Positions 30,274-56,947 of a DNA stretch of 59,331 nucleotides are shown here, one piece after another. How positions within the stretch are numbered: the first letter of the stretch is position 1; the number at the start of each line of letters is the position of its first letter. The position numbers were made by a program, and so were the translations under genes. Below the pieces are notes generated by a model. That model was given only the letters and a program-made list of their open reading frames with translations. It made no database searches and was not told the origin of the DNA. Source of the DNA: Caryophanales bacterium (GTDB taxonomy: Bacteria > Bacillota > Bacilli > Paenibacillales > CANHCR01); NCBI GenBank assembly GCA_947459205.1, contig CANHCR010000012.1, positions 1 through 59,331 on the forward strand, read 5' to 3'.

Positions 30274-30322
30274 AAAAAGTTTAAGACCGCGCGGCATATA
30301 AACCGTCAATCCTAAACTTTTT
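30274..30322 (-). terminator. AT-rich hairpin after the Rpn gene
   Basis: AAAAAGTTTA (30274-30283) pairs with TAAACTTTTT (30313-30322) across a 29-base loop, giving a U-rich tail on the minus strand just past the stop at 30341. The stem is AT-rich and the loop long, so it is a weak candidate. Confidence 0.4.
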
Positions 30323-30340
30323 ATGCAAACTTGATTCTTT

Positions 30341-30712
30341 TTATTCTAGTGAATCCAATACCTCTTTAGATAAACCAGTTACCTTCATGACAAATTCGAT
30401 GGGAGCGCCTTCCTTCAACATAAGAATTGCGATCTCTTTAGCTTTTAGCTGAGCGCCTTCCGCTTTGCCTTCCGCTTTGCCTTCCGCTTTGCCTTCCGCT
30501 TTGCCTTCCGCTTTGCCTTCGGCTTTGCCTTCGGCTTTGCCTTGCTTGAGACCATCCGCCATGCCTTGCTTGAGACCATCCTCAATGCCTTGCTTGAGAC
30601 CTTCCTCATACGCCGTCTTTCGAATCGCAAACTGGTCACGCACAAACTTCTCACGCGAAATTGCCAATAAACGAGCTTCCAAGTCCTGACTAATAGATTC
30701 CAATGTCATCAT
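30341..30712 (-). promoter_or_regulatory. Possible internal translation start in the Rpn gene
   Basis: GAAAGGTG is followed by two in-frame ATG codons at 30712 and 30709 (spacing 2 and 5 bases from AAAGG). They would start a 122-123-residue C-terminal protein (MTLESISQDLEARL...). Rpn loci in enterobacteria have been reported to make such intragenic products, which act as antitoxins. Here it is inference only. Confidence 0.35.
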
Positions 30713-31435
30713 CACCTTTCGTAATTGTTGATCTTCAGCAATCAGATTCGGCCACTTATTTAACGGTGCACCTTTGAAAAAGTACAGCCAATTCATCAAA
30801 GCCTGTCGAGTTTCCGTTTCCATCGCTTCCGTCTGCAATTTCGTCAACTCAATCACGTGAATTTCTAATAGATCACTTAACGGTTCTCCCGAGTCCACTT
30901 CACGCAACTGATACAGACTGTGCCAGTCCATCTGCTCTGTCAACGTAAAATCCAGCAAAAAAATCGTGACAGTACGCTTCAGTTCATGATAATTTTGACC
31001 ACGTTTTAGTTGTTCAACGAACGGTTTCGCCCAGTAATAAAGAGCTCTACCTTCCATTTCTTGATGATAAATCAACTGCATCTCAATATTGATCAACTCG
31101 CCGCTTGAAGCGATCGCGTGAACATCGAGCACAATCGACTTTTCGAGCAAACTACTGCCATCCAAATTCGGATTTAAAATTCGAATATCCTCAATTTGTG
31201 GTAGTCCACGATCGGCGAAAATGAGGTTGATAAACCGTAACAATGCATCTTCATTTCCGGGCGTGCAAAACAACTTCTTGAATACAAAATCGTTTTTCGG
31301 ATCTAACAAAGAAAACGTCCCGTCGGACCGTTCCACCTCATTCGCTCCGTCTTCCCTCCAAAGAAAACTTTGACCTACCCGCCATTCACCGGTTCTATAC
31401 CCCGAACTCTGCTCGAGCAACTGTTCTTGCTGCAC
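30341..31435 (-). CDS. Rpn/PD-(D/E)XK transposase-family nuclease with KAEG repeats
   Basis: A 364-residue protein with a GTG start after AAAGGATG. Residues about 40-260 are the Rpn (PDDEXK_2) domain: LLDPKNDFVFKKLF, LRFINLIF, the metal-binding pair in SIVLDVHA and INIEMQL, and YYWAKPF..QL..GQNY. The C-terminal part has a coiled stretch, GLKQG repeats (about 276-297), seven KAEG units (about 300-327), and a final helical tail (LMLKEGAPIEFVMKVTGLS) typical of the family. Rpn proteins cut DNA without sequence specificity and have been linked to recombination and phage defence. An internal start at 30709 or 30712 could give a 122-123-residue C-terminal product. Confidence 0.85.
   Translation of the reverse strand: MQQEQLLEQSSGYRTGEWRVGQSFLWREDGANEVERSDGTFSLLDPKNDFVFKKLFCTPGNEDALLRFINLIFADRGLPQIEDIRILNPNLDGSSLLEKSIVLDVHAIASSGELINIEMQLIYHQEMEGRALYYWAKPFVEQLKRGQNYHELKRTVTIFLLDFTLTEQMDWHSLYQLREVDSGEPLSDLLEIHVIELTKLQTEAMETETRQALMNWLYFFKGAPLNKWPNLIAEDQQLRKVMMTLESISQDLEARLLAISREKFVRDQFAIRKTAYEEGLKQGIEDGLKQGMADGLKQGKAEGKAEGKAEGKAEGKAEGKAEGKAEGAQLKAKEIAILMLKEGAPIEFVMKVTGLSKEVLDSLE
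30455..30542 (-). repeat. 12-bp tandem repeat coding KAEG units
   Basis: About seven units of GCCTTCCGCTTT (plus strand; the last ones read TTCGGC) encode KAEG. A degenerate 24-base repeat coding GLKQG(M/I)xD follows at about 30540-30608. The repeats are perfect enough for slippage in units of four codons. Confidence 0.85.
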
Positions 31436-31549
31436 TGATCACACATCCTTTGCGAATGAATTATACATCCAAATAATACCATTTATTCGCAAGAAAGTGA
31501 TGCCAAACTATGTTGAGACATGTGACAGTTGCTTGAACAAACAACGAAA

Positions 31550-32326
31550 TTACCAAATGATCGTTTCCTCATCCGGATAATGGAAGCCTTCTAACTCCAT
31601 ATCACTCGGATGCACACCGAACTCGCGTGCACCTTCCATAACTACCTGCAGTATCTCCTTATAATCCGGATCAGCGTGATAGCGAGTCAAACGATCAGCC
31701 AATTTCACCAACTGTTTCGCCCGCTTTTCACGGCTCCATTCCAGCCAATCCAAATTAAGCACGTCCAAAAACTGTCGCGCCATACTAGAAACTGAGACAA
31801 TGTCATCATTCATCAATTTCAGCCAGCGCACATAACTCTGCTCACTCAACGCCATGCGCAATGCTTTGGCAAACTGCGCTTGAAACATTCGAATGACCGA
31901 TATCTCCTCGTCCCAGAGCGCTAACGGGTGACGCAAACTGATCGAACCCATTTTCTGTTTGCTGACGATGATCGCCCTACGAACAGCCAACTGATTCAGG
32001 GCCAGCATGACGAACATCATCTCTGGTAACAACACTCGGCAACGATAATAGACATTATGTTCTGCCGTCACAAGTTTATGAAATTTCATCAAGTCGCGAT
32101 TCATGCCATTTTCGACGAGAGTGGCCTCGCGATCTCCCATACTTGCGTGGCGGACATCATAGCAGACGCCAAGCACACGAATGCACATGCTTGCGTAATA
32201 TGCATAATCCTTATCCTGTTCATCTGCCACGATAAAATGAAAGGCATCGACCAACTGCTGCAAATCTTCGATATCACCTGAAATCGTGACGCCAGTTAAA
32301 TTGGGTGTTAGATCAACGGTTAGCAT
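31550..32326 (-). CDS. DUF6904-like protein
   Basis: 258 residues from ATG 32326, chosen for a GGAGGT site 11 bases upstream. The opening (LTPNLTGVTISGDIEDLQQLVDAFHFI) and the following RVLGVCYDVRHASMGDRE segment match my memory of DUF6904, a Firmicute family of unknown function. The rest is mostly alpha-helical, with no membrane segment and no recognised catalytic motif. It lies 106 bases downstream of the STAND-TPR gene on the same strand and may be the last gene of that operon or an independent one. Confidence 0.6.
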   Translation of the reverse strand: MLTVDLTPNLTGVTISGDIEDLQQLVDAFHFIVADEQDKDYAYYASMCIRVLGVCYDVRHASMGDREATLVENGMNRDLMKFHKLVTAEHNVYYRCRVLLPEMMFVMLALNQLAVRRAIIVSKQKMGSISLRHPLALWDEEISVIRMFQAQFAKALRMALSEQSYVRWLKLMNDDIVSVSSMARQFLDVLNLDWLEWSREKRAKQLVKLADRLTRYHADPDYKEILQVVMEGAREFGVHPSDMELEGFHYPDEETIIW

Positions 32327-32432
32327 AAAAAGTTCTGACCTCCATTCTATCCTCACACCTTCATTATACAAGAAAATCTGCAGCAACCTACGTGCCATTT
32401 CCAACTCCCAACGCACTTTATCTAATTAATAA

Positions 32433-35405
32433 TTAGGATTCAAACCTTTCAATCAAAGCGTAGTAAGTCTTACCGACCAGTTTCCTCGAGAAAAATCGAA
32501 TGAGATAGTCGTTAAAATGAAATTCCGCACAGCGACGCATACCACCTGTTGTCGTTGATATCACGCGATAATCATCAATGCCGATCATTTGGCTGACTAG
32601 ATGAAAAGGCATGCCGACTGATGCGCCGAGGATTGATTCCGTAGCATCTAGGATTTTTCTACCAACGACCACCCCTTCATCTCGCGGAGCAACGATAAAT
32701 ATTTTGTCACCAAAATGCATCAAACGAAAAAAATGCCGATAAGCTTCGTCATGCTTACATTCGCCGTATTTGTTCCTCAAATACGAAACGGTAACGCCAA
32801 TTTCATAACAGTCCGTGAACGACTTCTCATCCTGCCGGGCTTGAAGCGCATGAATCAGTTGCCTGGTCTTGTGAATTTCGGCATCTTGAACACCGTTTGC
32901 CAACTGTATGTTTAACAGTTCATTCAATTGTTCTATCGATTCGTTCACTTGTCGGTTTTGATATAAAAACTTCGCATACTCCATCCGCACAATATTTAAA
33001 ATGAACCTTTCTCTAGGTGGATGCGCGCACATATCCTCAAGCAATGTTTTTCCAAGTTGGCAAGCCACTTCGGTTTTGCCTATATTCGCATGCATTACAA
33101 TCCAATTCATCCGAAAAAAATACGTTCTAGAATGATGCGCGCCTAATTTATTCTCCGTAACTTTATAGGCCCGCTCCGCCCAATAAAGCGCCTCCGTCAA
33201 CTTTTTTTTCTTCCAGTGAATGTGCGCAATATCTAGAAACGTATCGGCCAATTCCTCATTTTCAAAACCGAAACGGGAAAACTGCTTTTCCATCACATTT
33301 TTTTGAATTTCAATCGCTTCATCATACTTCCCGAAGTTCACATACTGATTGGCGATTTTTTGCTGGAGGTTTAGATATTCATCTTCTCGCTTATCTATTA
33401 TCAATTCTTTTTCAATTTGCATCCATATTTTCTTTGCCGCCATGAAATCTCCGAGTTCTGCCAGTGCGACGCCCAGCATTAAGCCGATTGCTCTGCATTT
33501 TTCGTGCTCGGGATAAAAATCACGGATTTTTTGATATGCTGTCCGCAAACATTTTTCCGCATCTGCAAATTGAAAATTCGCCAAATAATACCTGCCGCTA
33601 TCAGCCAACATCATGAGGGTATGTTCATTGTTTGGTCCAAATTTCGTTTGAAAATACGACATCAGTATTTCACTCTTTTTTATTGCTTCTTCAAGTTTTT
33701 GTGCCACATAGAGTTGGCGTACATATTGACGATGGTGTATTAGCGTTTCTTCATGCATTTCGCCGTATAGAAGGCGTGACCGGTGATAGTTAGCAAGTGC
33801 GCTCTCGATGGCCAACTGGTGGTTTCTCGCGTTTTCGCACACTTTCATCGTTCGCTCGAACACTTCTTTCATAATCGGCCTCGTGATCGGCAGTCGCTCT
33901 AATGTCGCATAAAATAATCGAACCATGTCTTCCATTGCCCATTCCAAACTGTTGTTATATTCGAGAAACCGAGAAAAAAGAAGTTGAAAACGAATCGTTT
34001 CATCCCCGTATTCACCATGCTTCTCAGCTAGTTGTTTCATCAGTTCGTGAGCAACCTTCTCTGCCGCTTGTGTATGTTCAGGATTGTCCAAGTTAAATTC
34101 GTTAAAATGTGCTTTGAAAAGCCCTTCAGAGATAGCACCTAAATCAGCGTTCCAGTTGATAATGCCATCATAATCTTTTAGCGATAAAAATGCGCTCTCC
34201 AATCGTTTGGATACTTGCTCTAGCAACGCGGAATTTGCGAACTTTCGATAAAGAGTTTTTCCAAATCGATGCAGTAGTTGGACGATCGATCGGTAATCAA
34301 ATGTCTGCTCATATAATTCTAGGAAGTTAACAAGTTGATTTATATAGTACCTTTCAGCATCCTCATAATTAAAATTCGATGCGCAAAAAACAGTGTTCTT
34401 TTGAATCAACCAAAATTTTGAGCGCGCACTATCGAGAGCCGATTGTTTCAACTGCTCATCGCAAAAGTCATACAATTGTTCAGTTAGCTTCATAATGAGC
34501 TGTTCGTCTAACTGAGCCGAAGAAAGGGCTGCCACATCATCTCGAACAGCAAGCCATCCTTCATCGATTCGATGCAAGCACCCTAGTTTGATTAACCGTG
34601 CCAATGTTTGTTCTACATACTGGAGATCAAGTCGTTGTGAAAATAAAGCAAACACCTGCTCCTCCCACACCTGTATTTTTGCAAATACTAGCATTATAAC
34701 CCTATCCATTGCTGATATTTGAGGCGCGACATGTTGAATATCAAAAGTTCCGCTTTCGATCTGCAAATGACTGATAAACTTTTCTTTTAACGGTTCGCGC
34801 GAATGAACGACCCAGAATAACTCCTTAAATTGATTTAAGATAGCTTTCTCATTTCCCTTTAACCAATTTAAACTTTTTAAATGTTCGACACCATATAGGA
34901 TGACGACAAATGGATTTCTACTTAATTCTATATTGAATGATAATGTATCAAAAAAAAGAAAATCAAGATAATAATAAAAATCGTATAAATTGTCCCTCCT
35001 AAATAACTCTAAAAGTTTCTCGGGATGTTTTGCACTATACTTTGGCACCTGAAAACGCTTATCGACCAATGTTGCATAAGCCTGCCTCACCCGCAATTCA
35101 TCATAAGCACAAAAAAACGGAGTAAAATCGAAGCCATAGCGCTTCTGCAAATCTAGCGCCATCGCATACAATGCTTCTGTAAGATTTTGTGTCTTGCGAA
35201 AATCAAACCAAACATATTTGATTGCAATACTCTCTTTTCTAATATGAGCGAGCAACGCCTCTTGCGCTTCTGTCCGCGAATCATCGGAGGCTCCGTGTAT
35301 GTTGAGCACATGCTGAACCAAATCTGTGTCCTTGGTCATTCTCGAAATCTGCTTAAAATAGTTGGCATGCGCATCACGAAAAACTTTGAGAACATATTCC
35401 ATCAT
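32433..35405 (-). CDS. STAND-type ATPase-TPR protein with degenerate P-loop
   Basis: A 990-residue protein. Residues about 25-330 have the layout of a STAND/NB-ARC module: a P-loop-position segment IHGASDDSRT (38-45), YVWFDFRKTQNLTEALY (64-80), a Walker-B-position strand FVVILYGVEH (166-175), and a sensor-like VVHSREPL (199-206). A winged-helix-like part comes next. The P-loop has Ser and Arg where Gly and Lys are expected, and Walker B has Tyr for Asp. Residues about 440-880 are tetratricopeptide repeats (for example YYLANFQFADAEKCLRTAY). The C-terminal 110 residues form an unassigned domain. In active relatives TPRs sense ligands and ATP drives assembly. Here ATP use is doubtful. Four bases separate it from the lipoprotein gene. 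Confidence 0.7.
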   Translation of the reverse strand: MMEYVLKVFRDAHANYFKQISRMTKDTDLVQHVLNIHGASDDSRTEAQEALLAHIRKESIAIKYVWFDFRKTQNLTEALYAMALDLQKRYGFDFTPFFCAYDELRVRQAYATLVDKRFQVPKYSAKHPEKLLELFRRDNLYDFYYYLDFLFFDTLSFNIELSRNPFVVILYGVEHLKSLNWLKGNEKAILNQFKELFWVVHSREPLKEKFISHLQIESGTFDIQHVAPQISAMDRVIMLVFAKIQVWEEQVFALFSQRLDLQYVEQTLARLIKLGCLHRIDEGWLAVRDDVAALSSAQLDEQLIMKLTEQLYDFCDEQLKQSALDSARSKFWLIQKNTVFCASNFNYEDAERYYINQLVNFLELYEQTFDYRSIVQLLHRFGKTLYRKFANSALLEQVSKRLESAFLSLKDYDGIINWNADLGAISEGLFKAHFNEFNLDNPEHTQAAEKVAHELMKQLAEKHGEYGDETIRFQLLFSRFLEYNNSLEWAMEDMVRLFYATLERLPITRPIMKEVFERTMKVCENARNHQLAIESALANYHRSRLLYGEMHEETLIHHRQYVRQLYVAQKLEEAIKKSEILMSYFQTKFGPNNEHTLMMLADSGRYYLANFQFADAEKCLRTAYQKIRDFYPEHEKCRAIGLMLGVALAELGDFMAAKKIWMQIEKELIIDKREDEYLNLQQKIANQYVNFGKYDEAIEIQKNVMEKQFSRFGFENEELADTFLDIAHIHWKKKKLTEALYWAERAYKVTENKLGAHHSRTYFFRMNWIVMHANIGKTEVACQLGKTLLEDMCAHPPRERFILNIVRMEYAKFLYQNRQVNESIEQLNELLNIQLANGVQDAEIHKTRQLIHALQARQDEKSFTDCYEIGVTVSYLRNKYGECKHDEAYRHFFRLMHFGDKIFIVAPRDEGVVVGRKILDATESILGASVGMPFHLVSQMIGIDDYRVISTTTGGMRRCAEFHFNDYLIRFFSRKLVGKTYYALIERFES

Positions 35406-35408
35406 CTA

Positions 35409-35903
35409 TCACCTCATTTGCTCCTTAATTTTCTCATCACTAGGCTTCACATCACCCGCCTCAATTTCATTAAAGAGAACTTCTATTTCAGCCCCTAAAG
35501 AACGTGGCATAATGGTGTACGTGTAACCATGAGCCACATAGTCATAAAATTTATCTTTTTCATACGCTAACTTCATCATTGATTTTAATTGTTTTGGGGC
35601 CTTGACTTGCTGATTCAGCCAACTGATACAAGCATCCAGCACATCATCGCTCATATCATAAATCGTCATCGAGTTGGTCCCGTACTGTTCACCAAATTGA
35701 AGTAAGGCGGCCATCTTGCCATTCTTGTGCAACTCTTCGCCCTTCAATTTAAAAGGCGCTGTATTGTGAAACGGCGTAGATTCTGGCACATCCGCTTTCT
35801 TTACTTCATTCTTTGTCGGTTTTGTTTTCGCCGCTTGTTCCGAATCACACCCTACGATAAGAAGCACCGCAAGCAACATAAGCCATCTAGCACGAAACCT
35901 CAC
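35409..35903 (-). CDS. Small lipoprotein of unknown function
   Basis: A 164-residue protein with a lipoprotein signal: basic N-terminus (RFRAR), a hydrophobic core, and lipobox LLIVGC with Cys19. The mature part starts with a Lys/Thr-rich linker, then a globular region (GKMAALLQFGEQYG, DACISWLNQQV) without a recognised family. GTG 35903 is used as the start; it lies 4 bases from the upstream stop codon and the local site is weak. As it sits between a TraG-like ATPase and a STAND-TPR protein in one operon, it may be the surface or membrane component of the same system. Confidence 0.65.
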   Translation of the reverse strand: MRFRARWLMLLAVLLIVGCDSEQAAKTKPTKNEVKKADVPESTPFHNTAPFKLKGEELHKNGKMAALLQFGEQYGTNSMTIYDMSDDVLDACISWLNQQVKAPKQLKSMMKLAYEKDKFYDYVAHGYTYTIMPRSLGAEIEVLFNEIEAGDVKPSDEKIKEQMR

Positions 35904-35906
35904 TGC

Positions 35907-37064
35907 TCAACACCCGCTTTCTTTGACTCTTGTGAAACGTTCATTTTTGTTGATTTCAAACGGAATATACTGTTTGATTGTCTCGGTCAAAGAATCGGAC
36001 TTCTCACCGATTCGCATGACAAAGTAAAGTTCATATTCACCAGGATTCTCTATCGGTGGACAGGAAATCGCTTCAAGCGGACATTGGAACCGTTCACCTT
36101 GTGTTCCTCCTAATTCACTTAGGCTGAATGTCAACGTTCTACAACCTTCATCGATAAACTCAAACACCACATGATTGTTTGCATCCAATATTTGCAACGA
36201 CATATATTGCAACTCAAGAGCAAAAGAAACTTCATCGATAATGACGTCATCGCCGACAGACAAAATCGGATGCACCTGCCAACTCTCATTGCCACTAAAA
36301 ATATAAGTCGTGTACTCGCCGCCATACGTATACAAATGATCAAACGGATGGACTGCCTCCAACAAAATGTGCAGATTCTCATTTTTAGCGTATCGCCAAC
36401 TTGAAGTCGCTTCGATTTGTGCAGTCATCTCTTGCAACTTTAAAATAGCCCGCTCTTTCGCAATGGACATCCTAACAACTTTTTCATTCAACCAATCATT
36501 TTTATAGTAGCGACGTTGTTGATCTCGAAATGGTTTGCAATTGTCTACCACAACCAGCATTTCTTCGTCCGTCATTTGGCGGATTTCAGAACTAGACATA
36601 ATGTCCACTTCGCTGCGATGAGAAGCAAAAATCTCAGGATTTTTGGTCACTTGATTGATTTCCATCTTTAATGATTCAGTTTTTCGCTTGCCGAGGAACT
36701 TATTGAAGTATTCCGCAGAATCGTACGACAAACCTGGCAAGACAATTTTCGTTTTCAAGTTATCGAGAATCACTTGTGCAGTTTGTTTGTCATATTTCGT
36801 TTCTAGTTGTAAATTACTTTGAATACCTAATGATATACTGACATTTTGTGAACGAAAAGTCGCCAGCGCTTTGTCCACATCAGGAATTTTACCGATATTG
36901 GCAAACTCATCGAGCATAAAATAAACTGGACGATCCGTTTTCGACGTCTGCATATATTTGAATAACTGATAGTAAAAAACCGAGAGCAACGGACTAGCGA
37001 GCGCCGCCTGCGTGAATGGCACCGTCACATATAGTACTGTCGGACGCTCTCTTAATGTTTGCAA
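35907..37064 (-). CDS. TraG/VirD4-like ATPase, C-terminal part (downstream of an in-frame UGA)
   Basis: A 385-residue open frame with a nominal TTG start, but it is in the same frame as the gene ending at 37077. The two are one gene split by a UGA. It opens with LRERPTVLYVTVPFTQ and has the Walker B strand of the VirD4/TraG family (VYFMLDEFANIGKIPD) and SLGIQSNLQLETKYD, matching the family's C-terminal motor half. From about residue 215 a non-family extension follows, likely beta-rich (YGGEYTTYIFSGNESWQV, CPLEAISCPPIENPGEYELYFVM). No ribosome binding site is seen before 37064, which argues against independent expression. Confidence 0.75.
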   Translation of the reverse strand: MQTLRERPTVLYVTVPFTQAALASPLLSVFYYQLFKYMQTSKTDRPVYFMLDEFANIGKIPDVDKALATFRSQNVSISLGIQSNLQLETKYDKQTAQVILDNLKTKIVLPGLSYDSAEYFNKFLGKRKTESLKMEINQVTKNPEIFASHRSEVDIMSSSEIRQMTDEEMLVVVDNCKPFRDQQRRYYKNDWLNEKVVRMSIAKERAILKLQEMTAQIEATSSWRYAKNENLHILLEAVHPFDHLYTYGGEYTTYIFSGNESWQVHPILSVGDDVIIDEVSFALELQYMSLQILDANNHVVFEFIDEGCRTLTFSLSELGGTQGERFQCPLEAISCPPIENPGEYELYFVMRIGEKSDSLTETIKQYIPFEINKNERFTRVKESGC

Positions 37065-37076
37065 ATCTATACCGCT

Positions 37077-37079
37077 TCA
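37077..37079 (-). other. In-frame UGA interrupting the TraG/VirD4-like gene
   Basis: The codons read ...CAT GCG ACT TCC TGA AGC GGT ATA GAT TTG CAA... on the minus strand, with no frame change on either side. A single CGA-to-TGA change would explain it. No obvious SECIS-like hairpin follows. Confidence 0.85.
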
Positions 37080-38255
37080 GGAAGTCGCATGTCGGATGCG
37101 CGCATCCATAAATGCCTGAACATTCGAGGAGAGCACCACTTTAATGCTGGCCAACGTTCTGTCTGAACCAGCAACGCTTGCGAATGTATTGAAATAGCGC
37201 TCAATTTCAGCTCCGAAACGACTGTCGTAATAAAACACAGTAAAAAGTCTCAAGGCTTGGATGTCTTCATATTTGTGAATGGTATCAATCGCGTCAGCAA
37301 TCGTCTGATTGCTCATTTTGCCGCACAACAATATCGACGTGAACAATGGCACACACATATTGATCCACTCTACGTCGATGCGTGAAGAATTACCCGAACC
37401 GATTGCACTCGAGCCGTTCATCAAGATGATCTGAGCTAATTGCCAGACGTCGGTGCTGTCTTCACAAAAATCGAGCGGATTGTAACATATCGTATCATAG
37501 GAAAACGGATCGAACCTGAAAATCTTCTTCCCTTGCAGGCGGTTTTGATGGACTGTTGTTTCGTACAATTCCCCTTTCGGATCAGCAACAATGATGGTGG
37601 CATCGGGGAGCGACAGCAAATTGGGAATGAAGAAACTGGCCGATTTGCCGCTACCGGTAGGTCCGATGATTAGACAATGTTCATAACTTTTCTCCTTTTT
37701 CAAACGCAGATGTTGCGAAATAATGAGCCCATCATCACCTGCATACTTCTCTAAATCCCGAAGTGAAGCATAATTTGGATGCGAATATCGCTCGCCTAAC
37801 GGAATCGTTGCAAGTTCAGACAGCGCGATACACCAATTTGCAATATTTTCTTTCACATAATACCTCTGATTTCGATTGACGTACCAATCGATGATATTCC
37901 ATACAAACGTTGATGCGGGTCGAACAAGATGACTCAAATATGATTCAGACTCGCCAAAAGTAACACGACCGAACAAATGAACGGAATGCGCCATAAATAA
38001 AATGAGGCGATGTGCCGCACCTTTCTCTTTCAACTCATCTAACATTTGCAAAAATACAACATTCTCTAATCTTTGTTGCGACAATTTATCGAACAAACTG
38101 TGAATGATCATGCGATTGATTTCATCGAGACGAAGCAGACATTGCATTGGTTTGTCAGAACCGAATGTCCTCGCTTGCTCATACAACTGGCGCAAAGTAT
38201 TGATGAACGTAGACTCATCATTTGTTGGCTGAAAACCCATTTTCGTATTTTGCAA
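37077..38255 (-). CDS. TraG/VirD4-like ATPase, N-terminal part ending at an in-frame UGA
   Basis: About 392 residues. TTG 38255 is preferred, since GGAG lies 9 bases upstream; the frame opens at 38264, too close to that site. Walker A GPTGSGKS is near residue 198, with DPKGE downstream, as in T4SS coupling proteins. Unlike VirD4, no N-terminal membrane helices are seen, so it should be soluble. The frame stops at TGA 37079-37077 within a conserved region (RIRHATS), then resumes in the same frame as SGIDLQTLRERPTV and continues to 35907. Read through, the protein would be about 782 residues. It is probably a recent nonsense mutation, a recoding site or a sequencing error. Confidence 0.75.
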   Translation of the reverse strand: MQNTKMGFQPTNDESTFINTLRQLYEQARTFGSDKPMQCLLRLDEINRMIIHSLFDKLSQQRLENVVFLQMLDELKEKGAAHRLILFMAHSVHLFGRVTFGESESYLSHLVRPASTFVWNIIDWYVNRNQRYYVKENIANWCIALSELATIPLGERYSHPNYASLRDLEKYAGDDGLIISQHLRLKKEKSYEHCLIIGPTGSGKSASFFIPNLLSLPDATIIVADPKGELYETTVHQNRLQGKKIFRFDPFSYDTICYNPLDFCEDSTDVWQLAQIILMNGSSAIGSGNSSRIDVEWINMCVPLFTSILLCGKMSNQTIADAIDTIHKYEDIQALRLFTVFYYDSRFGAEIERYFNTFASVAGSDRTLASIKVVLSSNVQAFMDARIRHATS

Positions 38256-38267
38256 ACGTATCAACTC

Positions 38268-38627
38268 CTAGTTTTCATTGACGTACCAGCGAAACAACAC
38301 TGCTGTGCTACTTGCACATGGAGTGACAAACATCGCATGTTGTGACGATGAATCAGAAATCGTCTCGCTGTCTGTCAATTGCAAAACGAGCTGAATATGC
38401 AGAAAAATCAAATCGGGCAATGCTTTCTTCTCAATCAAATATCGGAGAATATGCTGAATGGGAAACGAGTACACTTGTCCGCTTTGTCCAGACTCAAAAA
38501 CAGAGAAGCAAATGGTCTCCGCAACTTTGCGAAAGCCGAGCAGTGCGGTCGGCGGATCATCGTCGATGCTATCGATTGCTTTCTGATATTGTTGGACTAA
38601 CTGAGCGCGGGTGGTTTCGGTGAGCAT
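38268..38627 (-). CDS. Small HEPN/DUF4145-like helical protein
   Basis: A 119-residue protein with a good AAGGAGG site 7 bases before its ATG. Residues about 10-75 (YQKAIDSIDDDPPTALLGFRKVAETICFSV, then ILRYLIEKKALPD) resemble the core helices of DUF4145/HEPN-type domains, in which a conserved Arg and Glu lie on the first helix (FRKVAETI). Such domains are common in abortive-infection and helicase-associated proteins. The canonical RX4-6H RNase motif is not seen, so nuclease activity is not claimed. Its stop codon lies in the ribosome binding region of the TraG-like gene, so it heads the four-gene cassette. Confidence 0.55.
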   Translation of the reverse strand: MLTETTRAQLVQQYQKAIDSIDDDPPTALLGFRKVAETICFSVFESGQSGQVYSFPIQHILRYLIEKKALPDLIFLHIQLVLQLTDSETISDSSSQHAMFVTPCASSTAVLFRWYVNEN

Positions 38628-38665
38628 GAGCGGACCTCCTTATTTGCTTAACAAATAGACAGGTG

Positions 38666-39469
38666 TTATCTTAGAACATTAGAAATTGTTTCACTTATTG
38701 CTTGAAGTTGTCCATTTAATTCTGAATCACTGTAGTTCAAGATTACAAATCCACTTCCTAGCATTGTATTCTTCGTTACATCAGACTCGTTTTCAACCAA
38801 GCATTGGTATTTAAGTTTGGGCATGTTTGTATCCAATATCGCTTCCAAAAAATCTGAAATTTCTTTCTGATTAGCCTTTGAAAACACGGGGTGCCAGATG
38901 ACAATAATCAATTTGTTATTTTGGTTAAATGATTTTTCAATACATTCTTTAAATCTCTTGAAATCTTCTCTTTTATATGGCGGATCAATGAACAACACCG
39001 GTTGTTTCATGCAAGGTTGAACGCCAAACGTATCACTTTGCCAACTATCACAAATTCGCACATCGTATTTTTCCGGATTCATAAATTGCAAATTACCGTC
39101 TAATAACTGTGCAACATACTCATCATTTTCATAAAAAATAAACGAGGCATCATGCAAAAGTTGTGTGGCCAATAATGGTGACCCTGGATAATTCAAATTT
39201 TGACGAAAATAGGCGGTCGCGTATGCGAAAAAACTGATATTTTGAACTCCCGGAACAGCCATAATTTTTTTTATTCCATTTTTCCATTCTGGCGATTTAT
39301 CTTTTGCCGAGATAGATTGAAGGGAGTAAAGTCCTGCACCTGAATGCGACTCGATATAGTGACTGATACCAATAGTAGCGTGGAGATGCGACAAAACCTC
39401 AAACAAGAGCGCATGCTTAAAACAATCGGCATGGTTAGCAACTTTATTTTGATGAACATAGTGGTTCAT
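38666..39469 (-). CDS. RlmJ-like 23S rRNA (adenine-N6) methyltransferase
   Basis: A 267-residue protein, close in length to E. coli RlmJ (280). The family start NKVANHADCFKHA (8-20), SHSGAG (41-46, SAM loop), YPGSPLLA (94-101), motif IV DPPY (162-165) and the C-terminal GSGFVILNYS block all match. RlmJ methylates A2030 of 23S rRNA in Gram-negatives. Homologues are unusual in Firmicutes, and this copy sits in an AT-rich island between defence-like genes, which suggests horizontal acquisition. The site GGGAGG precedes the ATG. Its target could be rRNA or another nucleic acid. Confidence 0.8.
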   Translation of the reverse strand: MNHYVHQNKVANHADCFKHALLFEVLSHLHATIGISHYIESHSGAGLYSLQSISAKDKSPEWKNGIKKIMAVPGVQNISFFAYATAYFRQNLNYPGSPLLATQLLHDASFIFYENDEYVAQLLDGNLQFMNPEKYDVRICDSWQSDTFGVQPCMKQPVLFIDPPYKREDFKRFKECIEKSFNQNNKLIIVIWHPVFSKANQKEISDFLEAILDTNMPKLKYQCLVENESDVTKNTMLGSGFVILNYSDSELNGQLQAISETISNVLR

Positions 39470-39493
39470 GAATAATCCTCCCTTTTAATATGT

Positions 39494-41047
39494 TTACAAT
39501 TCGGTTTTTCGTTTAAAAGAACGCATTTTGAGGAAATAAACACTCAAAATAATCAGTCCTAATAAGCCGACACAAATAAGTGCAGTTGTTAACGGTGCTT
39601 TTTTTACATATTCTAGACCAACAATATCTACAAACAATGAAAATAAAGCAATAGAAATCGCCGAAAAAGTTAAAATTTGAAATAGCATATTTAATTTTGA
39701 TGTTGCCTGCAATTCTTTCATCGACACAAGTTCATTAATTTCAGTGCGAATACCCGTGAATATTGAATCGATGTTCAAAGCTCTTTTCCAAGATTCCCAA
39801 ATTCCTTCAGATTGAACATTGTCGGTTAAATGATAGAACCAGTGCTCCTTCATAAATTTCAGAAACACATTATGATGCTTAATCAACATTTTTGAATCTG
39901 CTCCCACATCATTTTGAACTTCTAGTTCCTTTGAATAATAAATTAAGAAACTTTTGTAATAAATATTGATGACAAGGAGCGGGACATACATTGAATCAAA
40001 CCAATAGACCATATCTTTTTTATTAACTTGTAAAGGTATCTCATGATCATCTGTTGCCAATGATAAAATGATTCCTCCCATTGAAGAAAAACAATAACGT
40101 GTACTCCCCCATTGCTGATACTCTGTTTCTTTATTTCCGATAAATTGGATCGGTTCAACCGCGTCAGAACCAATCGAAGTACTACGAAACATTCTTAGAC
40201 TATTAAAATATTTTTTGATTATTGGATTGCTGCGTATATATGACGATTGTAAATCCCCTTCAAATGGCATCTCTCGCGTTTGCAGTTCAATGTCATCTGG
40301 ATGCTTCTCTAAACACACGAATGAAAATGGGAAATTTTTATAAAAACCTTTTTCGAAGAATTTCGCCTCACTAGGAAAACTGAATTTACGCAATAAACTG
40401 TCATGTAATTCGGAGAGTTTCAAATCACAATACTCAGAATCGTTTCTTTTTTTATACATCACCGAATTTGTTTTGCTTTCATTGAACCCACCAAAAATAA
40501 CAAATGCAGGGTCGTACTTTTTAAGTTTTGAATCCCGATGCAGAAGACTGTTCCACATCAACAGATCTTCGACTGTATGTCCAGGTTTTAGACTGGTGTA
40601 GATGACTGACTGCAAAATAAAAGGCTTATCTGTCAACTCGGTTTTAAAGAACCAATACTGGATTTTATCAATTGAGCCATTGATTTCTAAACTTGAACCA
40701 TCGGACAAAGCGGTCAAAGAAATCATCACATCATAATCTAAACGAGCCTCAAACAACCGAATGCCGTGGTGTGTTTGTTGCGATAAAGAATCCGGTAAGT
40801 TAAATTTACCCTTGCTAAAAATAAACGGACTGTCGTGTATGGATTCCCACTTTTCGCAGTCTACGTGATATAATTCGCTATCTTCATGCATTGCATGATT
40901 TCCCATCATTTCTATGACTTCATCATTCAAAACCTTATAAGTAGTTAAAAATGTCGATGTGTGACTGGACCGAGTAATAGAGCTGTCTTCATAATTTGAA
41001 ATTTTAGGCGCTTTTTTAAACGTGTGATGGATTGAATGTTCAATCAG
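39494..41047 (-). CDS. CorA-like two-helix membrane protein with unusual start codon
   Basis: An unrecognised protein with a large soluble part, a long helical neck, and two membrane helices near the C-terminus (about residues 415-438 and 446-468 if counted from TTG 40930) separated by a short loop. This is the CorA-type layout, but there is no GMN motif. The only strong ribosome binding site, AGGAGGG at 41060-41054, lies upstream of TTG 40930. The frame is open from there, with CTG at 41047 (spacing 6) or ATT at 41044 (spacing 9) as candidate starts, giving about 517 residues. If the TTG is used the protein has 478. It lies 24 bases upstream of the RlmJ-like gene. CorA-like proteins can act as membrane effectors in defence; that role here is inference. 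Confidence 0.55.
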   Translation of the reverse strand: MIEHSIHHTFKKAPKISNYEDSSITRSSHTSTFLTTYKVLNDEVIEMMGNHAMHEDSELYHVDCEKWESIHDSPFIFSKGKFNLPDSLSQQTHHGIRLFEARLDYDVMISLTALSDGSSLEINGSIDKIQYWFFKTELTDKPFILQSVIYTSLKPGHTVEDLLMWNSLLHRDSKLKKYDPAFVIFGGFNESKTNSVMYKKRNDSEYCDLKLSELHDSLLRKFSFPSEAKFFEKGFYKNFPFSFVCLEKHPDDIELQTREMPFEGDLQSSYIRSNPIIKKYFNSLRMFRSTSIGSDAVEPIQFIGNKETEYQQWGSTRYCFSSMGGIILSLATDDHEIPLQVNKKDMVYWFDSMYVPLLVINIYYKSFLIYYSKELEVQNDVGADSKMLIKHHNVFLKFMKEHWFYHLTDNVQSEGIWESWKRALNIDSIFTGIRTEINELVSMKELQATSKLNMLFQILTFSAISIALFSLFVDIVGLEYVKKAPLTTALICVGLLGLIILSVYFLKMRSFKRKTEL

Positions 41048-41261
41048 AAAAATCCCTCCTAATGAATATTGATAAATGGAAACTCAGAAAATAAACATAA
41101 ATTACTATTTCAATAAAATTGTTAAATTTCCTTTATTAAAAAATATAAATTTACACATTTTTTCTTTTTTACAAGATCAACTTCACAACAAAACGGAGTG
41201 TTTTTCCAGTATACTGACATTACCACCACAAATGTCTATACGTCTTTCAGGAGGAGATTTC

Positions 41262-43589
41262 GTGAAGCCTGTCACTTTAGAGCGCTTTTTCGCCGCCATG
41301 CAAACAGCACACAACGGCATATTGCCACTCGACCCACAGCAGAAACTAGCATTCCATCACGACTACCGCACGCCTCTTTGGATGATTGCTGGTCCAGGCA
41401 CAGGCAAGACGCACACCATCACATGGCTCGTGCTGAAACGGATGCTGGTCGACCGTATCGATCCGTCTCGCATCATTTTTACAACTTTCACCAATAAAGC
41501 CGCCAATGAACTGCAGACGCGGCTCATCGATCATTATCAAAAACTGCTCCAAGCTGGTCTTGTGGAAGCCATGTCGATTGATCCGACCAAAATTCGTTTA
41601 GGTACCCTGCACAGCATCTGCACCAATGTGCTGCGTGAGCAACGCTACGAACCGACGATGCGCATCAACTTGCTGGACGATGAGAACAAACAAAAATTTT
41701 TCTTGCAAAAAACGTATCCTGATTGGCGGCACCCCAACCCGTTACTCAAGAAGGAAAATGCAGGACGCCTAAAACTGTTGCTGGAATTTTTTCAGTTTTG
41801 GTGGGACGGAAAAAAACAAGGGTTCGATCCGCCATCGAGTCGAAAAGTCGAGTTTGTCGCCAAACTGTTCAGTCGTGCGATTGAGAACCACGTCGGCATC
41901 GAACCTTTGCGTCGTTCCACAAATGTAAACTTGCAATTTCTCGGCGAAGGGCTGCAAGATTATCACAACAAACTTGCACATTTTCATTTCACGGATCAGT
42001 CGATGATCCAAAAACATTTTCTCGATTTCCTCAATTCCGAAGATGGTCGAGAGTGGATTGGAAGCGGGTTCACCATGTTCGTCGACGAATATCAGGATAC
42101 GAATCCCATTCAATCGGAAATCTACTTTGCGCTGACTGGCAGACGAGGTGACTTGTCCGTAGTCGGTGATGACGATCAGTCATTGTATCGGTTTAGGGGC
42201 GCCACGGTTGAGTCACTCATATTGTTCGACCAAATCTGTATGGCAAAAGGCTTGTCGCGTCCGCAACCGCTTTATCTTTTTGAAAATCGACGCAGCCATC
42301 CAGCAATTGTAGACTGGATCAATCGGTTCATCTCTACTCACCCAACGATGCATCCCATCGGTAGTTCGATGCGTGTTCGTGCCCCTGGCAAACCGAACAT
42401 CGTCAGCCGTTCGAATATTCGCGGACAATATCCCGCATTACTTGCGCTGACCAACGATTCCATCGGAACTCGCGATGACCATGATGCGCTTAAGGCAGCA
42501 AATCTCATCCAATATCTCAAAACCAACCATCTGATTGAAGACTACAGTCAAGTCGCTATTCTTTCGTTCAGCACCGCCGAAGATAGTGCAGGATTAGCGG
42601 CATATACTAGCGCATTTCGAGCGGCTGGCATTCCCTATTTTAATCCACGAAGCAAGCAAACTCAGGAGCATCCCGTCTTTCGCCAATTGCTAGGAGCAAT
42701 CAGTTTGATATTGCAACCAGAACACGAACATCACGTTCAACCCGAGTTTGCCATCAGAAAAAACTGGAACTACCTCGTCGAGTGCAGGCAAATGTGCAGG
42801 ACGCTATGCGCAACTCACCGAGAATTAGCAGCCTACATCGAAACATCGGTCGAGGAAATTCGGCAAAAATCGACAATTTTCCGCGCCAAAAACAGTCGCT
42901 ATCCAGAATATTTGACGAACAGCAGAGGTCGACGCGTCAGTTTCTCTCATTTATGGTTCAAACTGATTGGGTTCGAACCGTTTCTCAGTCAGTTGTCCGA
43001 CATGCATGTCGCAGAAAAACTTAAAGCGTTGAACAATCTGATCGTCGGGTTCGAAGCGATCTATGATCAGGGGGAATTGAAACTGGCGACTGCTGGCAGT
43101 CCGACACTGGTTGACGGCAACAATGTCATCGAATTTTGTAACATATTCATTGATGCGCTCATCGGAGGCGTTAACGAACCGGAAGATGACGAGTCCGCAG
43201 TACGCAAAGGATACGTCAATATCATGACCATTCATCAATCCAAGGGGCTAGAATTCGACGTCGTGTTCGTGTTGAAATCAAACCGCACCGCATTCGCGAG
43301 CGACACGCATGGCATCGAGCGCATTATCAATCCGCTGCGTCCGCCTCATTTGCGCAATCCGCACATGCGGAGCGATGAAGAGCGGGTCGCCGAGGACAAC
43401 TTCAGGCTCTACTTCGTCGCCTACTCCCGCGCCAAAAAACTGCTGTGCATCAACGGCGTGTTTCCGCTCGCAATCGATGATTACAAACTGCGGATGAATC
43501 CGTGGGGGCGCGTTTTGCCTCACACTGAGCGGCGTGCGATGATTGGCAATGTCCAAGAACTAAGAAAAATAGGGGTGACTATTTTATGA
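41262..43589 (+). CDS. UvrD/PcrA-like superfamily 1 DNA helicase
   Basis: 775 residues from GTG 41262, chosen because AGGAGGAG ends 5 bases upstream; the frame opens earlier at 41076. Walker A AGPGTGKT is at 43-50, motif Ia FTTFTNKAANEL, Walker B VDEYQD at 274-279, motif III VVGDDDQSLYRFRGA, motif V MTIHQSKGLEFDVVFVL, and motif VI RLYFVAYSRAKK-like. This is a complete SF1A helicase core of normal length. Its stop codon overlaps the start of a Cas4-like nuclease (ATGA), so the two probably form a helicase-nuclease complex. The base composition is more GC-rich than the neighbouring island genes. Confidence 0.9.
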   Translation: MKPVTLERFFAAMQTAHNGILPLDPQQKLAFHHDYRTPLWMIAGPGTGKTHTITWLVLKRMLVDRIDPSRIIFTTFTNKAANELQTRLIDHYQKLLQAGLVEAMSIDPTKIRLGTLHSICTNVLREQRYEPTMRINLLDDENKQKFFLQKTYPDWRHPNPLLKKENAGRLKLLLEFFQFWWDGKKQGFDPPSSRKVEFVAKLFSRAIENHVGIEPLRRSTNVNLQFLGEGLQDYHNKLAHFHFTDQSMIQKHFLDFLNSEDGREWIGSGFTMFVDEYQDTNPIQSEIYFALTGRRGDLSVVGDDDQSLYRFRGATVESLILFDQICMAKGLSRPQPLYLFENRRSHPAIVDWINRFISTHPTMHPIGSSMRVRAPGKPNIVSRSNIRGQYPALLALTNDSIGTRDDHDALKAANLIQYLKTNHLIEDYSQVAILSFSTAEDSAGLAAYTSAFRAAGIPYFNPRSKQTQEHPVFRQLLGAISLILQPEHEHHVQPEFAIRKNWNYLVECRQMCRTLCATHRELAAYIETSVEEIRQKSTIFRAKNSRYPEYLTNSRGRRVSFSHLWFKLIGFEPFLSQLSDMHVAEKLKALNNLIVGFEAIYDQGELKLATAGSPTLVDGNNVIEFCNIFIDALIGGVNEPEDDESAVRKGYVNIMTIHQSKGLEFDVVFVLKSNRTAFASDTHGIERIINPLRPPHLRNPHMRSDEERVAEDNFRLYFVAYSRAKKLLCINGVFPLAIDDYKLRMNPWGRVLPHTERRAMIGNVQELRKIGVTIL

Positions 43590-44557
43590 GTTTTGAGCGA
43601 ATGTTCCGCGACTGGCCGCTTACTCATTTGCGAGAGGTGAAAATGATACGCAGTTATTCGGTAACGACCGACATATTGTCGTACAAAAGGTGCCGGCGAC
43701 AGTATGGATTTTTTAACGTACGCGGCTATCGAAGTTCATCGGCTACGCAACGTTACTTCGGGACAATGGTGCATGATGTGCTCGACCAACTGTATCGCAT
43801 GTACAAAAAAACGAAACGACTCCCGGACGGACGGGAAGTCGTTGATTGTGTCGAGAAAGCGCATGTTCGTCTCATTCAATCGGGCGTGCGCGCGGTTTAC
43901 ACTGTCCAACAAAAAGAACAAATCGTCACACTGATCCGGCGTTTTTTGGAACTGGCGGGACAACCTTTTTTCGCAAATATTCGCGAAACGGAGTACACCT
44001 TGGAGCGCTCCATGGACGGTGATGGCGCACCCGACTTCGTGCTGGAAGGAATCGTCGACGTATTGGCAGGGGCAGTCTCGCATGCATTGGGACTCGAGAT
44101 GTCGCGCTCGACCACTGGCAATGACGTCGAAATTTGGGATTACAAATCCGGCGAAATGCCCGCTGCCGATTCCCAATTGATGGCTGACTATCAGTACCAA
44201 ATGAACGTTTACGCCGAACTGTATTATCAGCAGACGGGCATCTACCCGGCTCGCTGCGTGCTGATGTTCATCGGTGAACTGAACAACGATCGGCTGTACA
44301 ATCGGTGTCGCGCCGACATCCGCGAATTACGTCACATTTTGCATGTGATACACCCGAGTGACGAGCAGATTGGACGTGCGATGACAGATTTCCGGCAAAC
44401 GGTCGCTTGCATCGAAGGCGAGAAGCAATTGCCGTATGCCACGCAATGGCAAGCACCAAATCATGACGTGGACCGTGACACATGTATCGCTTGCGAGTTG
44501 CGATACCATTGCCCGAAGTTCAGCGACCGCGACCGGCACCGGCGGGAGCCGTTGTAG
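43586..44557 (+). CDS. Cas4/AddB-like PD-(D/E)XK nuclease with Fe-S cysteines
   Basis: A 323-residue protein. ATG 43586 overlaps the helicase stop codon; ATG 43643 (after GAGAGGTG) is an alternative. Active-site candidates are His in GTMVHDVLDQL, Asp/Glu in LEGIVDVLAG, and the hallmark IWDYKSG, then a QMNVYAELYYQ motif. Cys36 (YKRCRRQYG), Cys300, Cys303 and Cys309 (CIACELRYHC) match the four-cysteine 4Fe-4S staple of Cas4 and AddB nucleases. It is therefore a RecB-type exonuclease predicted to act with the helicase upstream. There are no CRISPR genes nearby, so it is not an adaptation Cas4. Confidence 0.88.
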   Translation: MSFERMFRDWPLTHLREVKMIRSYSVTTDILSYKRCRRQYGFFNVRGYRSSSATQRYFGTMVHDVLDQLYRMYKKTKRLPDGREVVDCVEKAHVRLIQSGVRAVYTVQQKEQIVTLIRRFLELAGQPFFANIRETEYTLERSMDGDGAPDFVLEGIVDVLAGAVSHALGLEMSRSTTGNDVEIWDYKSGEMPAADSQLMADYQYQMNVYAELYYQQTGIYPARCVLMFIGELNNDRLYNRCRADIRELRHILHVIHPSDEQIGRAMTDFRQTVACIEGEKQLPYATQWQAPNHDVDRDTCIACELRYHCPKFSDRDRHRREPL

Positions 44558-44735
44558 TGGTAAAATGGGACCGTGAAAGCAGTCACTGATCGAGGTGCAT
44601 CCCATGATCTCACTGCATGTTTCGCGCGAAAAAATGTCGGTCACGGCGACGGCCTCCGTTTCTCTAGGTTTCGGTTGATTGTCAGTCCATACAATTTTTC
44701 CACGCTTCACCTCGCGCTATACACCAGTCAATCAT

Positions 44736-45623
44736 CTAGTGATGCACGATATAAATCGGCACTTTATAGCGATTAAAATTCGCCCCGCTCGGATAAAGCA
44801 ATTTTTCAAACGTTACATGTTGATCGTTCCGTGAATCCAGTAATGTTGCCACCATTTCAATATTGCCGTAGATATAATCGGCACCATTGTGATACCACCG
44901 GTAATGGCGATATCCGCTTGGTTGCCCGAGCATGAATCGCTCAATATCAAACAAAGCGTCTGTTTTTAGATGCGGTAATGATCGTTGCAATTCGGTCCTG
45001 AGTGTTCGGAAAGCAAACGCGTTTGCCATCGCTTCCTCATGAGGCAGATTGGCATATGGACCAAGCATTTGTACAGAGTATACATGATGAAAATAATCTA
45101 AAAAGACTGGTCTCGGACAGCGAGCAAGATACAGAATTTCCTCAAGCGTAGTGGCAGCGACATCGACAAAATAATGATAATGCTCGTGCGCTAGCAACAG
45201 TTTGTACGCCCAAATTCTGGAGTCGATAATCCCTTGTTGTTTGGTTGAGGCAGCCCTGCGAATCGCAGTAAGACGGCGCGCTAACTTTTGCACGCCCTTC
45301 GTACGGATATAGATGCCCCACTTGTGCTGCGGCTCAAAATGATAAGAACGGTACCACGCGTAATACTCAAAGCAATCTTCATCTGGCAAGTCACGTTGAG
45401 GATCTTCGTCCAGCCAGTCTTCCTCTTCCCACTGTTCGCAAATCCACGGTTCGTTGACCATTTGGTCAGTTGGAACGCTGTTGAACGGCTCGCCAAACTC
45501 CTCTGAAATCGGCACATTTGCACAATCAAGCAGATTTCTGCGGAACACATCGTACTTGTCATTGGCATGGGTCGTAACGCCCATTTCTCGCACACTGCGC
45601 AACAAATCTTCATTTTTTATCAT
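44736..45623 (-). CDS. HExxH metalloprotease-like protein (ImmA/IrrE-like core)
   Basis: A 295-residue protein with ATG 45623 behind AAGGAG. It contains a zinc-protease motif HEHYH (146-150) in LLLAHEHYHYF and a downstream helix HEEAMANAFAFRTLR (195-209) in which Glu196 or Glu197 fits the third zinc ligand. This spacing resembles ImmA/IrrE-like gluzincins. The N-terminal 140 residues are acidic and unassigned. No signal peptide, so cytoplasmic. It lies alone between convergent UvrD/Cas4-like genes and the AddAB-like set, 106 bases downstream of the 471-residue helicase on the same strand. It could be a regulator-cleaving protease or an effector. Confidence 0.6.
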   Translation of the reverse strand: MIKNEDLLRSVREMGVTTHANDKYDVFRRNLLDCANVPISEEFGEPFNSVPTDQMVNEPWICEQWEEEDWLDEDPQRDLPDEDCFEYYAWYRSYHFEPQHKWGIYIRTKGVQKLARRLTAIRRAASTKQQGIIDSRIWAYKLLLAHEHYHYFVDVAATTLEEILYLARCPRPVFLDYFHHVYSVQMLGPYANLPHEEAMANAFAFRTLRTELQRSLPHLKTDALFDIERFMLGQPSGYRHYRWYHNGADYIYGNIEMVATLLDSRNDQHVTFEKLLYPSGANFNRYKVPIYIVHH

Positions 45624-45729
45624 GAAAGTTCACGCTCCTTTTTTAACGAACAGGCAGGCTCACACCTTGATGAGGTTAACCGAAGCAACGCCACAATGAG
45701 ACATTTATGAATTTATAACGACCATACAC

Positions 45730-47145: not shown

Positions 47146-47157
47146 TCTTCGTCCTCC

Positions 47158-47367
47158 TCAATCATCATCTTCATCATCGCTCATTATAAAATCTTTAGCG
47201 GAACGTATCTTTGACTCTGTCCCTTGTGCGCTAAGCGTCGCATGAGATCCACTTACACCTTCTGTCGTAACGGAATCAATTTTGCCTCTCGTTTCTTTCG
47301 ATGTAAATTCAATCCATTTGCTCGCGATAGTTTTCCATAACGAAAAGTCCAACTTTCGAATTTCCAA
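47158..47367 (-). CDS. 69-residue protein with acidic tail, unrecognised
   Basis: A TTG start (47367) preceded by GGGAGGT at 7-base spacing, and a stop codon that abuts the helicase ribosome binding site, support this as a real gene. The sequence has a helical N-terminus (LWKTIASKWIEFTS), a Ser/Thr-rich middle, and an acidic end (SDDEDDD). An acidic C-terminal tail can mimic DNA or bind a helicase, but no function can be assigned. It lies 15 bases downstream of the AddB-like gene. Confidence 0.6.
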   Translation of the reverse strand: MEIRKLDFSLWKTIASKWIEFTSKETRGKIDSVTTEGVSGSHATLSAQGTESKIRSAKDFIMSDDEDDD

Positions 47368-47382
47368 ATAAATTACCTCCCA

Positions 47383-52640: not shown

Positions 52641-52701
52641 CTATATCAGGCCTCTCTGTAAATGATAGCGATTACATAAATAGATTCAAAGGTTTTAAAA
52701 C

Positions 52702-52707
52702 ATTATA
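52702..52707 (-). promoter_or_regulatory. Candidate -10 element for the AddA-like gene
   Basis: TATAAT on the minus strand, 62 bases upstream of the TTG start. A weak -35 (TTCCAA) lies 17 bases further upstream. The rest of the gap 52641-52854 is AT-rich. Confidence 0.4.
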
Positions 52708-52751
52708 AGCGAATCGATGATTTATTGGAACAAACAACGGCATTATTCGAC

Positions 52752-52800
52752 AAAAAGCCTTGATAGGTCTTTAAACACTTAAAAAAAATTTAGGGCTTTT
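52752..52800 (-). terminator. Possible terminator after the DUF3427-MutT operon
   Basis: AAAAGCC (52753-52759) pairs with GGCTTTT (52794-52800), with an A run on the left that becomes a U run on the minus strand, 55 bases past the stop at 52855. The loop is long, so this is tentative. Confidence 0.35.
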
Positions 52801-52854
52801 CGAAACAAATTTGTCCGTACTCCGCATTCTGAAACAAAATCGCTTTAAGGTATA

Positions 52855-53235: not shown

Positions 53236-53248
53236 TCATTCACCCCAT

Positions 53249-53647: not shown

Positions 53648-53669
53648 ACATTCACATCCAATTCATGAA

Positions 53670-56855: not shown

Positions 56856-56947
56856 GGCTAAACTCCTCCAATACTTACTTTCTTGTTCACGATGTATCTA
56901 TTATACCTATTTTCGTTAATTATGTTGTGAATTGATAATTTTGCATA

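What the first reader, a model, noticed from the sequence alone, without database searches (positions are those of the whole stretch)
32433..38627. Four-gene cassette: HEPN-like, soluble TraG/VirD4-like ATPase, lipoprotein, STAND-TPR protein
Four genes lie on one strand with gaps of only a few bases. They pair a DNA-pumping-type ATPase that lacks membrane helices with a lipoprotein, a small HEPN-like protein and a STAND-TPR protein. No relaxase, pilus, VirB4 or other conjugation gene is present, so this is not an ordinary mobile element remnant. The combination suggests a membrane-linked sensing or defence device that I do not recognise as a named system.
Basis: partly seen in the sequence, partly recalled or inferred. 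Interest (0 to 1): 0.78.

Follow-up and report, generated by a model that had tools for sequence, protein, structure and literature searches.

The report
Orphan HEPN–TraG ATPase cassette, ATPase interrupted
In a foreign-looking, defence-rich DNA island of a Gram-positive bacterium lie four tightly packed genes built around a DNA-pump-like ATPase that has lost its membrane anchor and gained an inactive RNA-enzyme-like helper domain; the set is unusual, but it was found in only this one genome and its pump gene is broken by a premature stop codon.

Summary
The four genes are real: tightly spaced, one strand, most with ribosome-binding sites. (1) The ATPase gene is interrupted by an in-frame TGA (37077-37079) between its two nucleotide-binding motifs, so in this assembly no complete ATPase is encoded. 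(2) The HEPN-like protein and the ATPase N-terminus are paralogous; profile comparison places them with DUF4145-type HEPN domains, but the catalytic R-x4-6-H is not kept, so RNase activity is unlikely. (3) The "STAND" protein has detectable TPR repeats but no P-loop and no NTPase-domain match; STAND is not supported. (4) No second copy of the four-gene order was found. Confirmed: the ATPase is TraG/VirD4-type without membrane helices, the lipoprotein has a lipobox, and the genome holds no VirB4 above cut-off and no other coupling protein. The cassette sits in a 26.7-kb low-GC island inserted between mtaB and a NUDIX gene, which are adjacent in 7 of 9 relatives; the island also carries restriction- and helicase-type defence genes. 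Best reading: an unnamed, rare conflict-type cassette derived from an orphan VirD4-like ATPase, probably non-functional here. A new variant of a known kind; mechanism unproven.

The parts
38268..38627 (-). HEPN1: 119-aa free-standing DUF4145-type HEPN-like protein, catalytic R-x4-6-H absent; ATG with perfect Shine-Dalgarno AGGAGGT
   Evidence: start, no R-x4-6-H; HHalign to DUF4145: probability 85, P 6e-6 with its paralogue; 60 column shuffles reach at most 17.3 against a score of 38.1
37845..38255 (-). HEPN2: N-terminal domain of the ATPase, paralogous to HEPN1, standing where coupling proteins have membrane helices
   Evidence: (BLASTP 27% identity, E 2e-7); hydrophobicity
35907..38255 (-). 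TraG/VirD4-type ATPase gene (783 codons incl. stop), probable TTG start at 38255 with AGGAG overlapping the HEPN1 stop; interrupted at 37077-37079
   Evidence: (PF02534 40-247 in the first half, 254-459 in the second)
37077..37079 (-). in-frame TGA between Walker A (GPTGSGKS) and the LDEFANIG Walker B region
   Evidence: aligned residue is variable in relatives; no Shine-Dalgarno before the next start at 37064
35907..36480 (-). approximate C-terminal extension of the ATPase, no family match
   Evidence: absent from relatives in alignments; no significant Pfam match
35409..35903 (-). 164-aa lipoprotein, GTG start, lipobox LLIVG-C; no relatives found
32433..35405 (-).
   Evidence: (TPR_12; FxsT TPR part 68.8 bits, below cut-off)
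31550..32416 (-). DUF6904 protein directly downstream on the same strand; occurs on its own elsewhere, so probably a neighbour rather than a part
   Evidence: 242 bits; 14 of 119 phylum genomes
30310..57021 (.). 26.7-kb low-GC insertion between NUDIX (29782-30309) and mtaB (57022-58356) that contains the cassette
   Evidence: GC 0.35-0.51 against 0.47-0.60 in the flanks; NUDIX follows mtaB directly in 7 of 9 relatives, deoC in one more

Best explanation
An unnamed, rare accessory cassette of conflict or defence type, carried on an acquired island. Its core is a coupling-protein-family ATPase (TraG/VirD4) from a lineage whose nearest relatives are stand-alone membrane proteins without a recognised conjugation apparatus nearby. 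Here the membrane anchor has been replaced by a DUF4145-type HEPN domain without its RNase motif, and a free paralogue of that domain is encoded just upstream. Most likely the two dead HEPN domains pair and serve as a docking module, so that the free HEPN subunit and the TPR protein (scaffold or sensor) assemble on a soluble hexameric ATPase ring that works on invading nucleic acid or protein; the lipoprotein would act outside the cell, for example as an entry or surface-exclusion factor. In this genome the ATPase gene is cut by a premature stop, so the device is probably inactive unless the stop is an assembly error. Shown: gene order, spacing, ATPase family, HEPN profile similarity, lack of the RNase motif and of membrane helices, insertion site, stop codon. 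Inferred: pairing of the HEPN domains, ring assembly, substrate, role of the lipoprotein and TPR protein, and the defence role itself.
For: Gene order and translation signals. Both ATPase halves match PF02534 and together form one match of 228 bits with one internal TGA. HEPN1 and the ATPase N-terminus are paralogous and match DUF4145 profiles far above shuffled controls. DUF4145 HEPN domains are known to be fused to helicases and restriction enzymes (PMC3710099), and the same domain repeated in adjacent genes is the mark of the effector-associated docking domains described in PMC7159879. Nearest ATPases, Priestia plasmid pFDU301A (41-46%) and a Clostridia MAG (36%), are lone genes with N-terminal membrane helices. 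Island placement between genes that are adjacent in relatives, low GC, and defence-type neighbours (mREase_IV 435 bits, PDC-S07 166 bits, GajB-like helicases; CorA-like). No VirB4 over cut-off and no other coupling protein in the genome.
Against: No second copy of the cassette: TPR protein absent from 200 order genomes, 40 relatives, 398 phylum genomes, phages, plasmids (TPR part only) and IMG/VR patterns; the HEPN pair gave only chance-level hits elsewhere. Without relatives, neither selection nor co-occurrence can be tested. No recognisable toxin, nuclease or membrane-damage domain was found among the four proteins. The ATPase is interrupted.
Confidence: 0.35

Rival explanations
1. Relic of a mobile element: a coupling protein plus an exclusion-type lipoprotein left from a mobilisable plasmid or integrative element, with unrelated genes alongside.
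For: The ATPase family is that of conjugative coupling proteins; related ATPases occur on plasmids, including a small Rossellomorea plasmid with a MobA/MobL relaxase and no annotated T4SS; conjugative elements are known to carry exclusion lipoproteins (own knowledge, e.g. YddJ of ICEBs1); the ATPase gene is broken, as in decay.
Against: No VirB4 over the family cut-off and no other coupling protein anywhere in the genome; no relaxase, integrase or pilus gene recognised among the island genes scanned with Pfam; a HEPN domain in place of the membrane anchor is not a decay product; the other reading frames are open, including 990 codons of the TPR gene.
Confidence: 0.25
2. The ATPase is functional: the TGA is a sequencing or assembly error, or is read through, or the two halves are made separately by re-initiation at TTG 37064.
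For: The frame is open on both sides of the single stop over 782 codons with all motifs kept; the next start lies 12 bases downstream in the same frame.
Against: No Shine-Dalgarno before TTG 37064; the stop separates Walker A from Walker B, and the best relatives found are unsplit, apart from one decayed fragment pair; the aligned position is variable in relatives, which argues against a required recoded residue; TGA ends neighbouring genes normally. Reads are not available.
Confidence: 0.3
3. No functional unit: four accessory genes brought together by island turnover, transcribed together but not working together.
For: No second instance of the order was found; defence islands shuffle genes; DUF6904 next door is a stand-alone family.
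Against: HEPN1 and the ATPase share a paralogous domain and overlapping translation signals; spacing of 12, 3 and 3 bases and similar GC3 of 0.41-0.51, against 0.33 in the upstream CorA/RlmJ pair.
Confidence: 0.2

Closest known systems
TraG/VirD4 type IV coupling proteins (PF02534; Cag5, TrwB)
   Same: P-loop ATPase core, Walker A and LDEFANIG Walker B, TraG-D_C domain; PDB sequence match to Cag5 3.8e-25
   Different: no N-terminal membrane helices, HEPN domain instead, extra C-terminal extension, no T4SS found in the genome, gene interrupted
Lone VirD4-like ATPases of Firmicutes (Priestia pFDU301A L018; Clostridia MAG L054)
   Same: closest ATPase cores (41-46% and 36%), no conjugation genes recognised nearby
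   Different: they keep membrane helices and have no HEPN, lipoprotein or TPR partner
DUF4145 HEPN proteins (PF13643)
   Same: whole-domain profile similarity; often in defence contexts (PMC3710099)
   Different: R-x4-6-H motif not kept; below Pfam detection on its own
FxsT-type TPR proteins (NF040586)
   Same: TPR half matches (68.8 bits)
   Different: below the family cut-off; the Streptomyces FxsT compared has an intact P-loop (GGGGVGKT), this protein has none
HerA/MADS-type defence ATPases in PADLOC
   Same: weak motif-level matches (16-22 bits)
   Different: no partner genes of those systems; matches cover mostly the P-loop region

Membership tests
TraG/VirD4 coupling-protein ATPase | PF02534 core with Walker A and Walker B | tested here: met
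   (228 bits over both halves, read through one TGA)
TraG/VirD4 coupling-protein ATPase | N-terminal transmembrane anchor | tested here: not met
   no 19-residue window above 1.6; the Priestia relative reaches 2.96
TraG/VirD4 coupling-protein ATPase | association with T4SS or relaxase | tested here: not met
   no VirB4 over the cut-off and no second coupling protein in the genome; relaxases were not searched genome-wide
DUF4145/HEPN | sequence-profile similarity over the domain | tested here: met
   probability 85, P 6e-6, against reversed (P 0.26) and 60 shuffled controls; the free protein alone 2.8e-5, the ATPase domain alone only 0.031
DUF4145/HEPN | catalytic R-x4-6-H motif | tested here: not met
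   none in HEPN1; one R-x6-H string in HEPN2 (RLILFMAH) that HEPN1 does not share; alignment
DUF4145/HEPN | HEPN fold | tested here: inconclusive
   model pLDDT 58.8, five helices; Csm6' on top (Z 6.7) but not above helical-bundle background
STAND NTPase | P-loop NTPase domain | tested here: not met
   no G-x4-GK[ST] in 990 aa; no NACHT/NB-ARC/AAA match at E up to 1 for the whole protein or up to 10 for residues 1-300; structure model uninformative
Bacterial lipoprotein | signal peptide with lipobox ending in Cys | tested here: met
   MRFRARWLMLLAVLLIVGC read directly; processing not tested
Known defence systems in PADLOC 2.0 | strong model match for any of the four proteins | tested here: not met
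   only motif-level matches to HerA, mad8, mad3 and DpdF
Conserved four-gene system | same order in other genomes | tested here: inconclusive

The most novel reading that the evidence does not exclude
A new kind of conflict system in which a coupling-protein ATPase was turned into a soluble machine by swapping its membrane anchor for a dead HEPN docking domain, with a free HEPN partner, a TPR sensor and an external lipoprotein, intact in relatives not yet sampled.
Probability: 0.18. Interest if true: 0.65.

Novelty: new variant of a known kind. Interest (0 to 1): 0.36.

Why it matters
If real, it shows a conjugation-type motor recruited into a cytosolic complex by domain replacement, and DUF4145-type HEPN domains used as adaptors rather than RNases. 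As it stands it is a single, interrupted example, so it mainly tells searchers to look for HEPN-fused TraG ATPases.

Tried and rejected
STAND-NTPase label for the 990-aa protein: rejected (no P-loop, no profile match). RNase toxin reading of HEPN1: rejected for lack of the motif. Complete ICE: rejected (no VirB4 over cut-off, no other coupling protein). Recoded TGA: considered, unlikely, since the position is variable and TGA is a normal stop next door. Structure of the TPR protein: single-sequence model too poor to use (pLDDT 38). HEPN1 model: too weak for a fold claim. First HHalign run was flawed because several loci were on the wrong strand; repeated correctly. An alignment with HEPN1 added to the ATPases misplaced HEPN1 and was not used for structure. 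The two weak HEPN hits elsewhere (L149, L150) fall in regions coding for unrelated proteins. Island ends: no shared repeat of 12 bases or more in the stretches compared. Literature searches found no such system. CorA/RlmJ upstream: judged a separate module from its GC3 of 0.33.

Full report
What is there. The window belongs to a 2.52-Mb, 73-contig assembly, 99.45% complete. Four minus-strand genes occupy 32433-38627 as reported: a 119-aa protein (38268-38627), an ATPase gene, a 164-aa lipoprotein (35409-35903) and a 990-aa TPR protein (32433-35405). Spacing is 12, 3 and 3 bases if the ATPase starts at TTG 38255, which has AGGAG overlapping the preceding TAG; the first gene has a perfect AGGAGGT and the TPR gene GAGGTGAT; the lipoprotein gene has only a weak site. 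This is an ordinary operon-like layout, not a chance alignment of open frames.

The ATPase gene is interrupted. Its two halves (37077-38264 and 35907-37064) lie in one frame, separated by a TGA at 37077-37079. The first half matches PF02534 positions 40-247 and holds Walker A; the second matches 254-459 and holds LDEFANIG. Searched as one, the match is 228 bits with one internal TGA. The position is variable in relatives, there is no ribosome-binding site before the next start, and TGA is used as a normal stop by neighbouring genes. A nonsense mutation or an assembly error is therefore much likelier than recoding.

What the proteins are. The ATPase belongs to the TraG/VirD4 coupling proteins; its nearest cores are a lone ATPase on the Priestia plasmid pFDU301A (41% and 46%) and one in a Clostridia MAG (36%). 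Both relatives carry N-terminal membrane helices, and no conjugation genes were recognised next to them; their neighbours were judged from ORF translations, not by profile. The window protein has no such helices. Instead its first 130 or so residues are paralogous to the free 119-aa protein (BLASTP 2e-7). No Pfam model detects either, but HHalign of the pair against 21 DUF4145 domains gathered here gives probability 85 and P 6e-6, with a score of 38.1 against at most 17.3 in 60 column shuffles and 12.2 for reversed sequences. The support comes mainly from the free protein (P 2.8e-5); the ATPase domain alone is weak (0.031). The R-x4-6-H motif, described as the primary determinant of the HEPN RNase active site (PMC3710099), is absent from the free protein and not shared by the other.

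The 990-aa protein has TPR repeats and resembles FxsT only there. It has no G-x4-GK[ST] motif and its first 300 residues match nothing. It may be a degenerate STAND, but the evidence does not show it. The lipoprotein has a clear lipobox and no relatives in the plasmid collection.

Setting. GC falls to 35-51% between about 30 and 57 kb, against 47-60% outside. In 7 of 9 relatives the NUDIX gene follows mtaB directly, and in one more deoC does; in the window they are separated by 26.7 kb (a notebook entry that says 8 of 9 counts that deoC case too). The cassette is thus on an insertion. Its other genes include a PLD-helicase-DUF3427 protein (PADLOC mREase_IV, 435 bits), a NUDIX protein (PDC-S07, 166 bits), GajB-like UvrD helicases, a CorA-like protein, an RlmJ-like methyltransferase and an Rpn-family nuclease. 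PADLOC names are model matches, not tested functions. No integrase was recognised and no terminal repeat found.

Distribution. The TPR protein has no match in 200 genomes of the order, 40 relatives, 398 genomes of the phylum, the phages or IMG/VR patterns, and only its TPR part matches three Streptomyces plasmids. The HEPN pair has no credible match in 398 phylum genomes. DUF6904, next downstream, is common on its own (14 of 119) and is best treated as a neighbour.

Judgement. The cassette is real, unusual and unnamed, but known from one copy with a broken central gene. The best-supported reading is a rare conflict-type cassette derived from an orphan VirD4-like ATPase; the HEPN docking mechanism is inference by analogy with effector-associated domains (PMC7159879). 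A mobile-element relic and an intact gene hidden by an assembly error remain open.

Noticed in passing
window 30310-57021: 26.7-kb low-GC island inserted between mtaB and a NUDIX gene that are adjacent in most relatives; carries several defence-type genes and no recognised integrase.
   Followed up: partly
window 38666-40930: RlmJ-like methyltransferase next to a CorA-like membrane protein (PADLOC CorA models, 57 bits) with GC3 of 0.33; possibly a separate two-gene module.
   Followed up: no
window 53249-56855: PLD-helicase-DUF3427 protein (mREase_IV-like, 435 bits) with an adjacent NUDIX protein matching PADLOC PDC-S07 (166 bits).
   Followed up: no
window 47383-52640: 901-aa protein with no Pfam or PADLOC match overlapping a UvrD-type helicase gene by 4 bases; looks like an uncharacterised pair.
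   Followed up: no
window 31550-32416: DUF6904 protein, found in about one in eight genomes of the phylum sampled, with no paper in the library naming it.
   Followed up: partly
L054 7704-9350: Lone VirD4-like ATPase with membrane helices among housekeeping genes of a Clostridia MAG; a sign that orphan coupling proteins exist outside conjugation loci.
   Followed up: no
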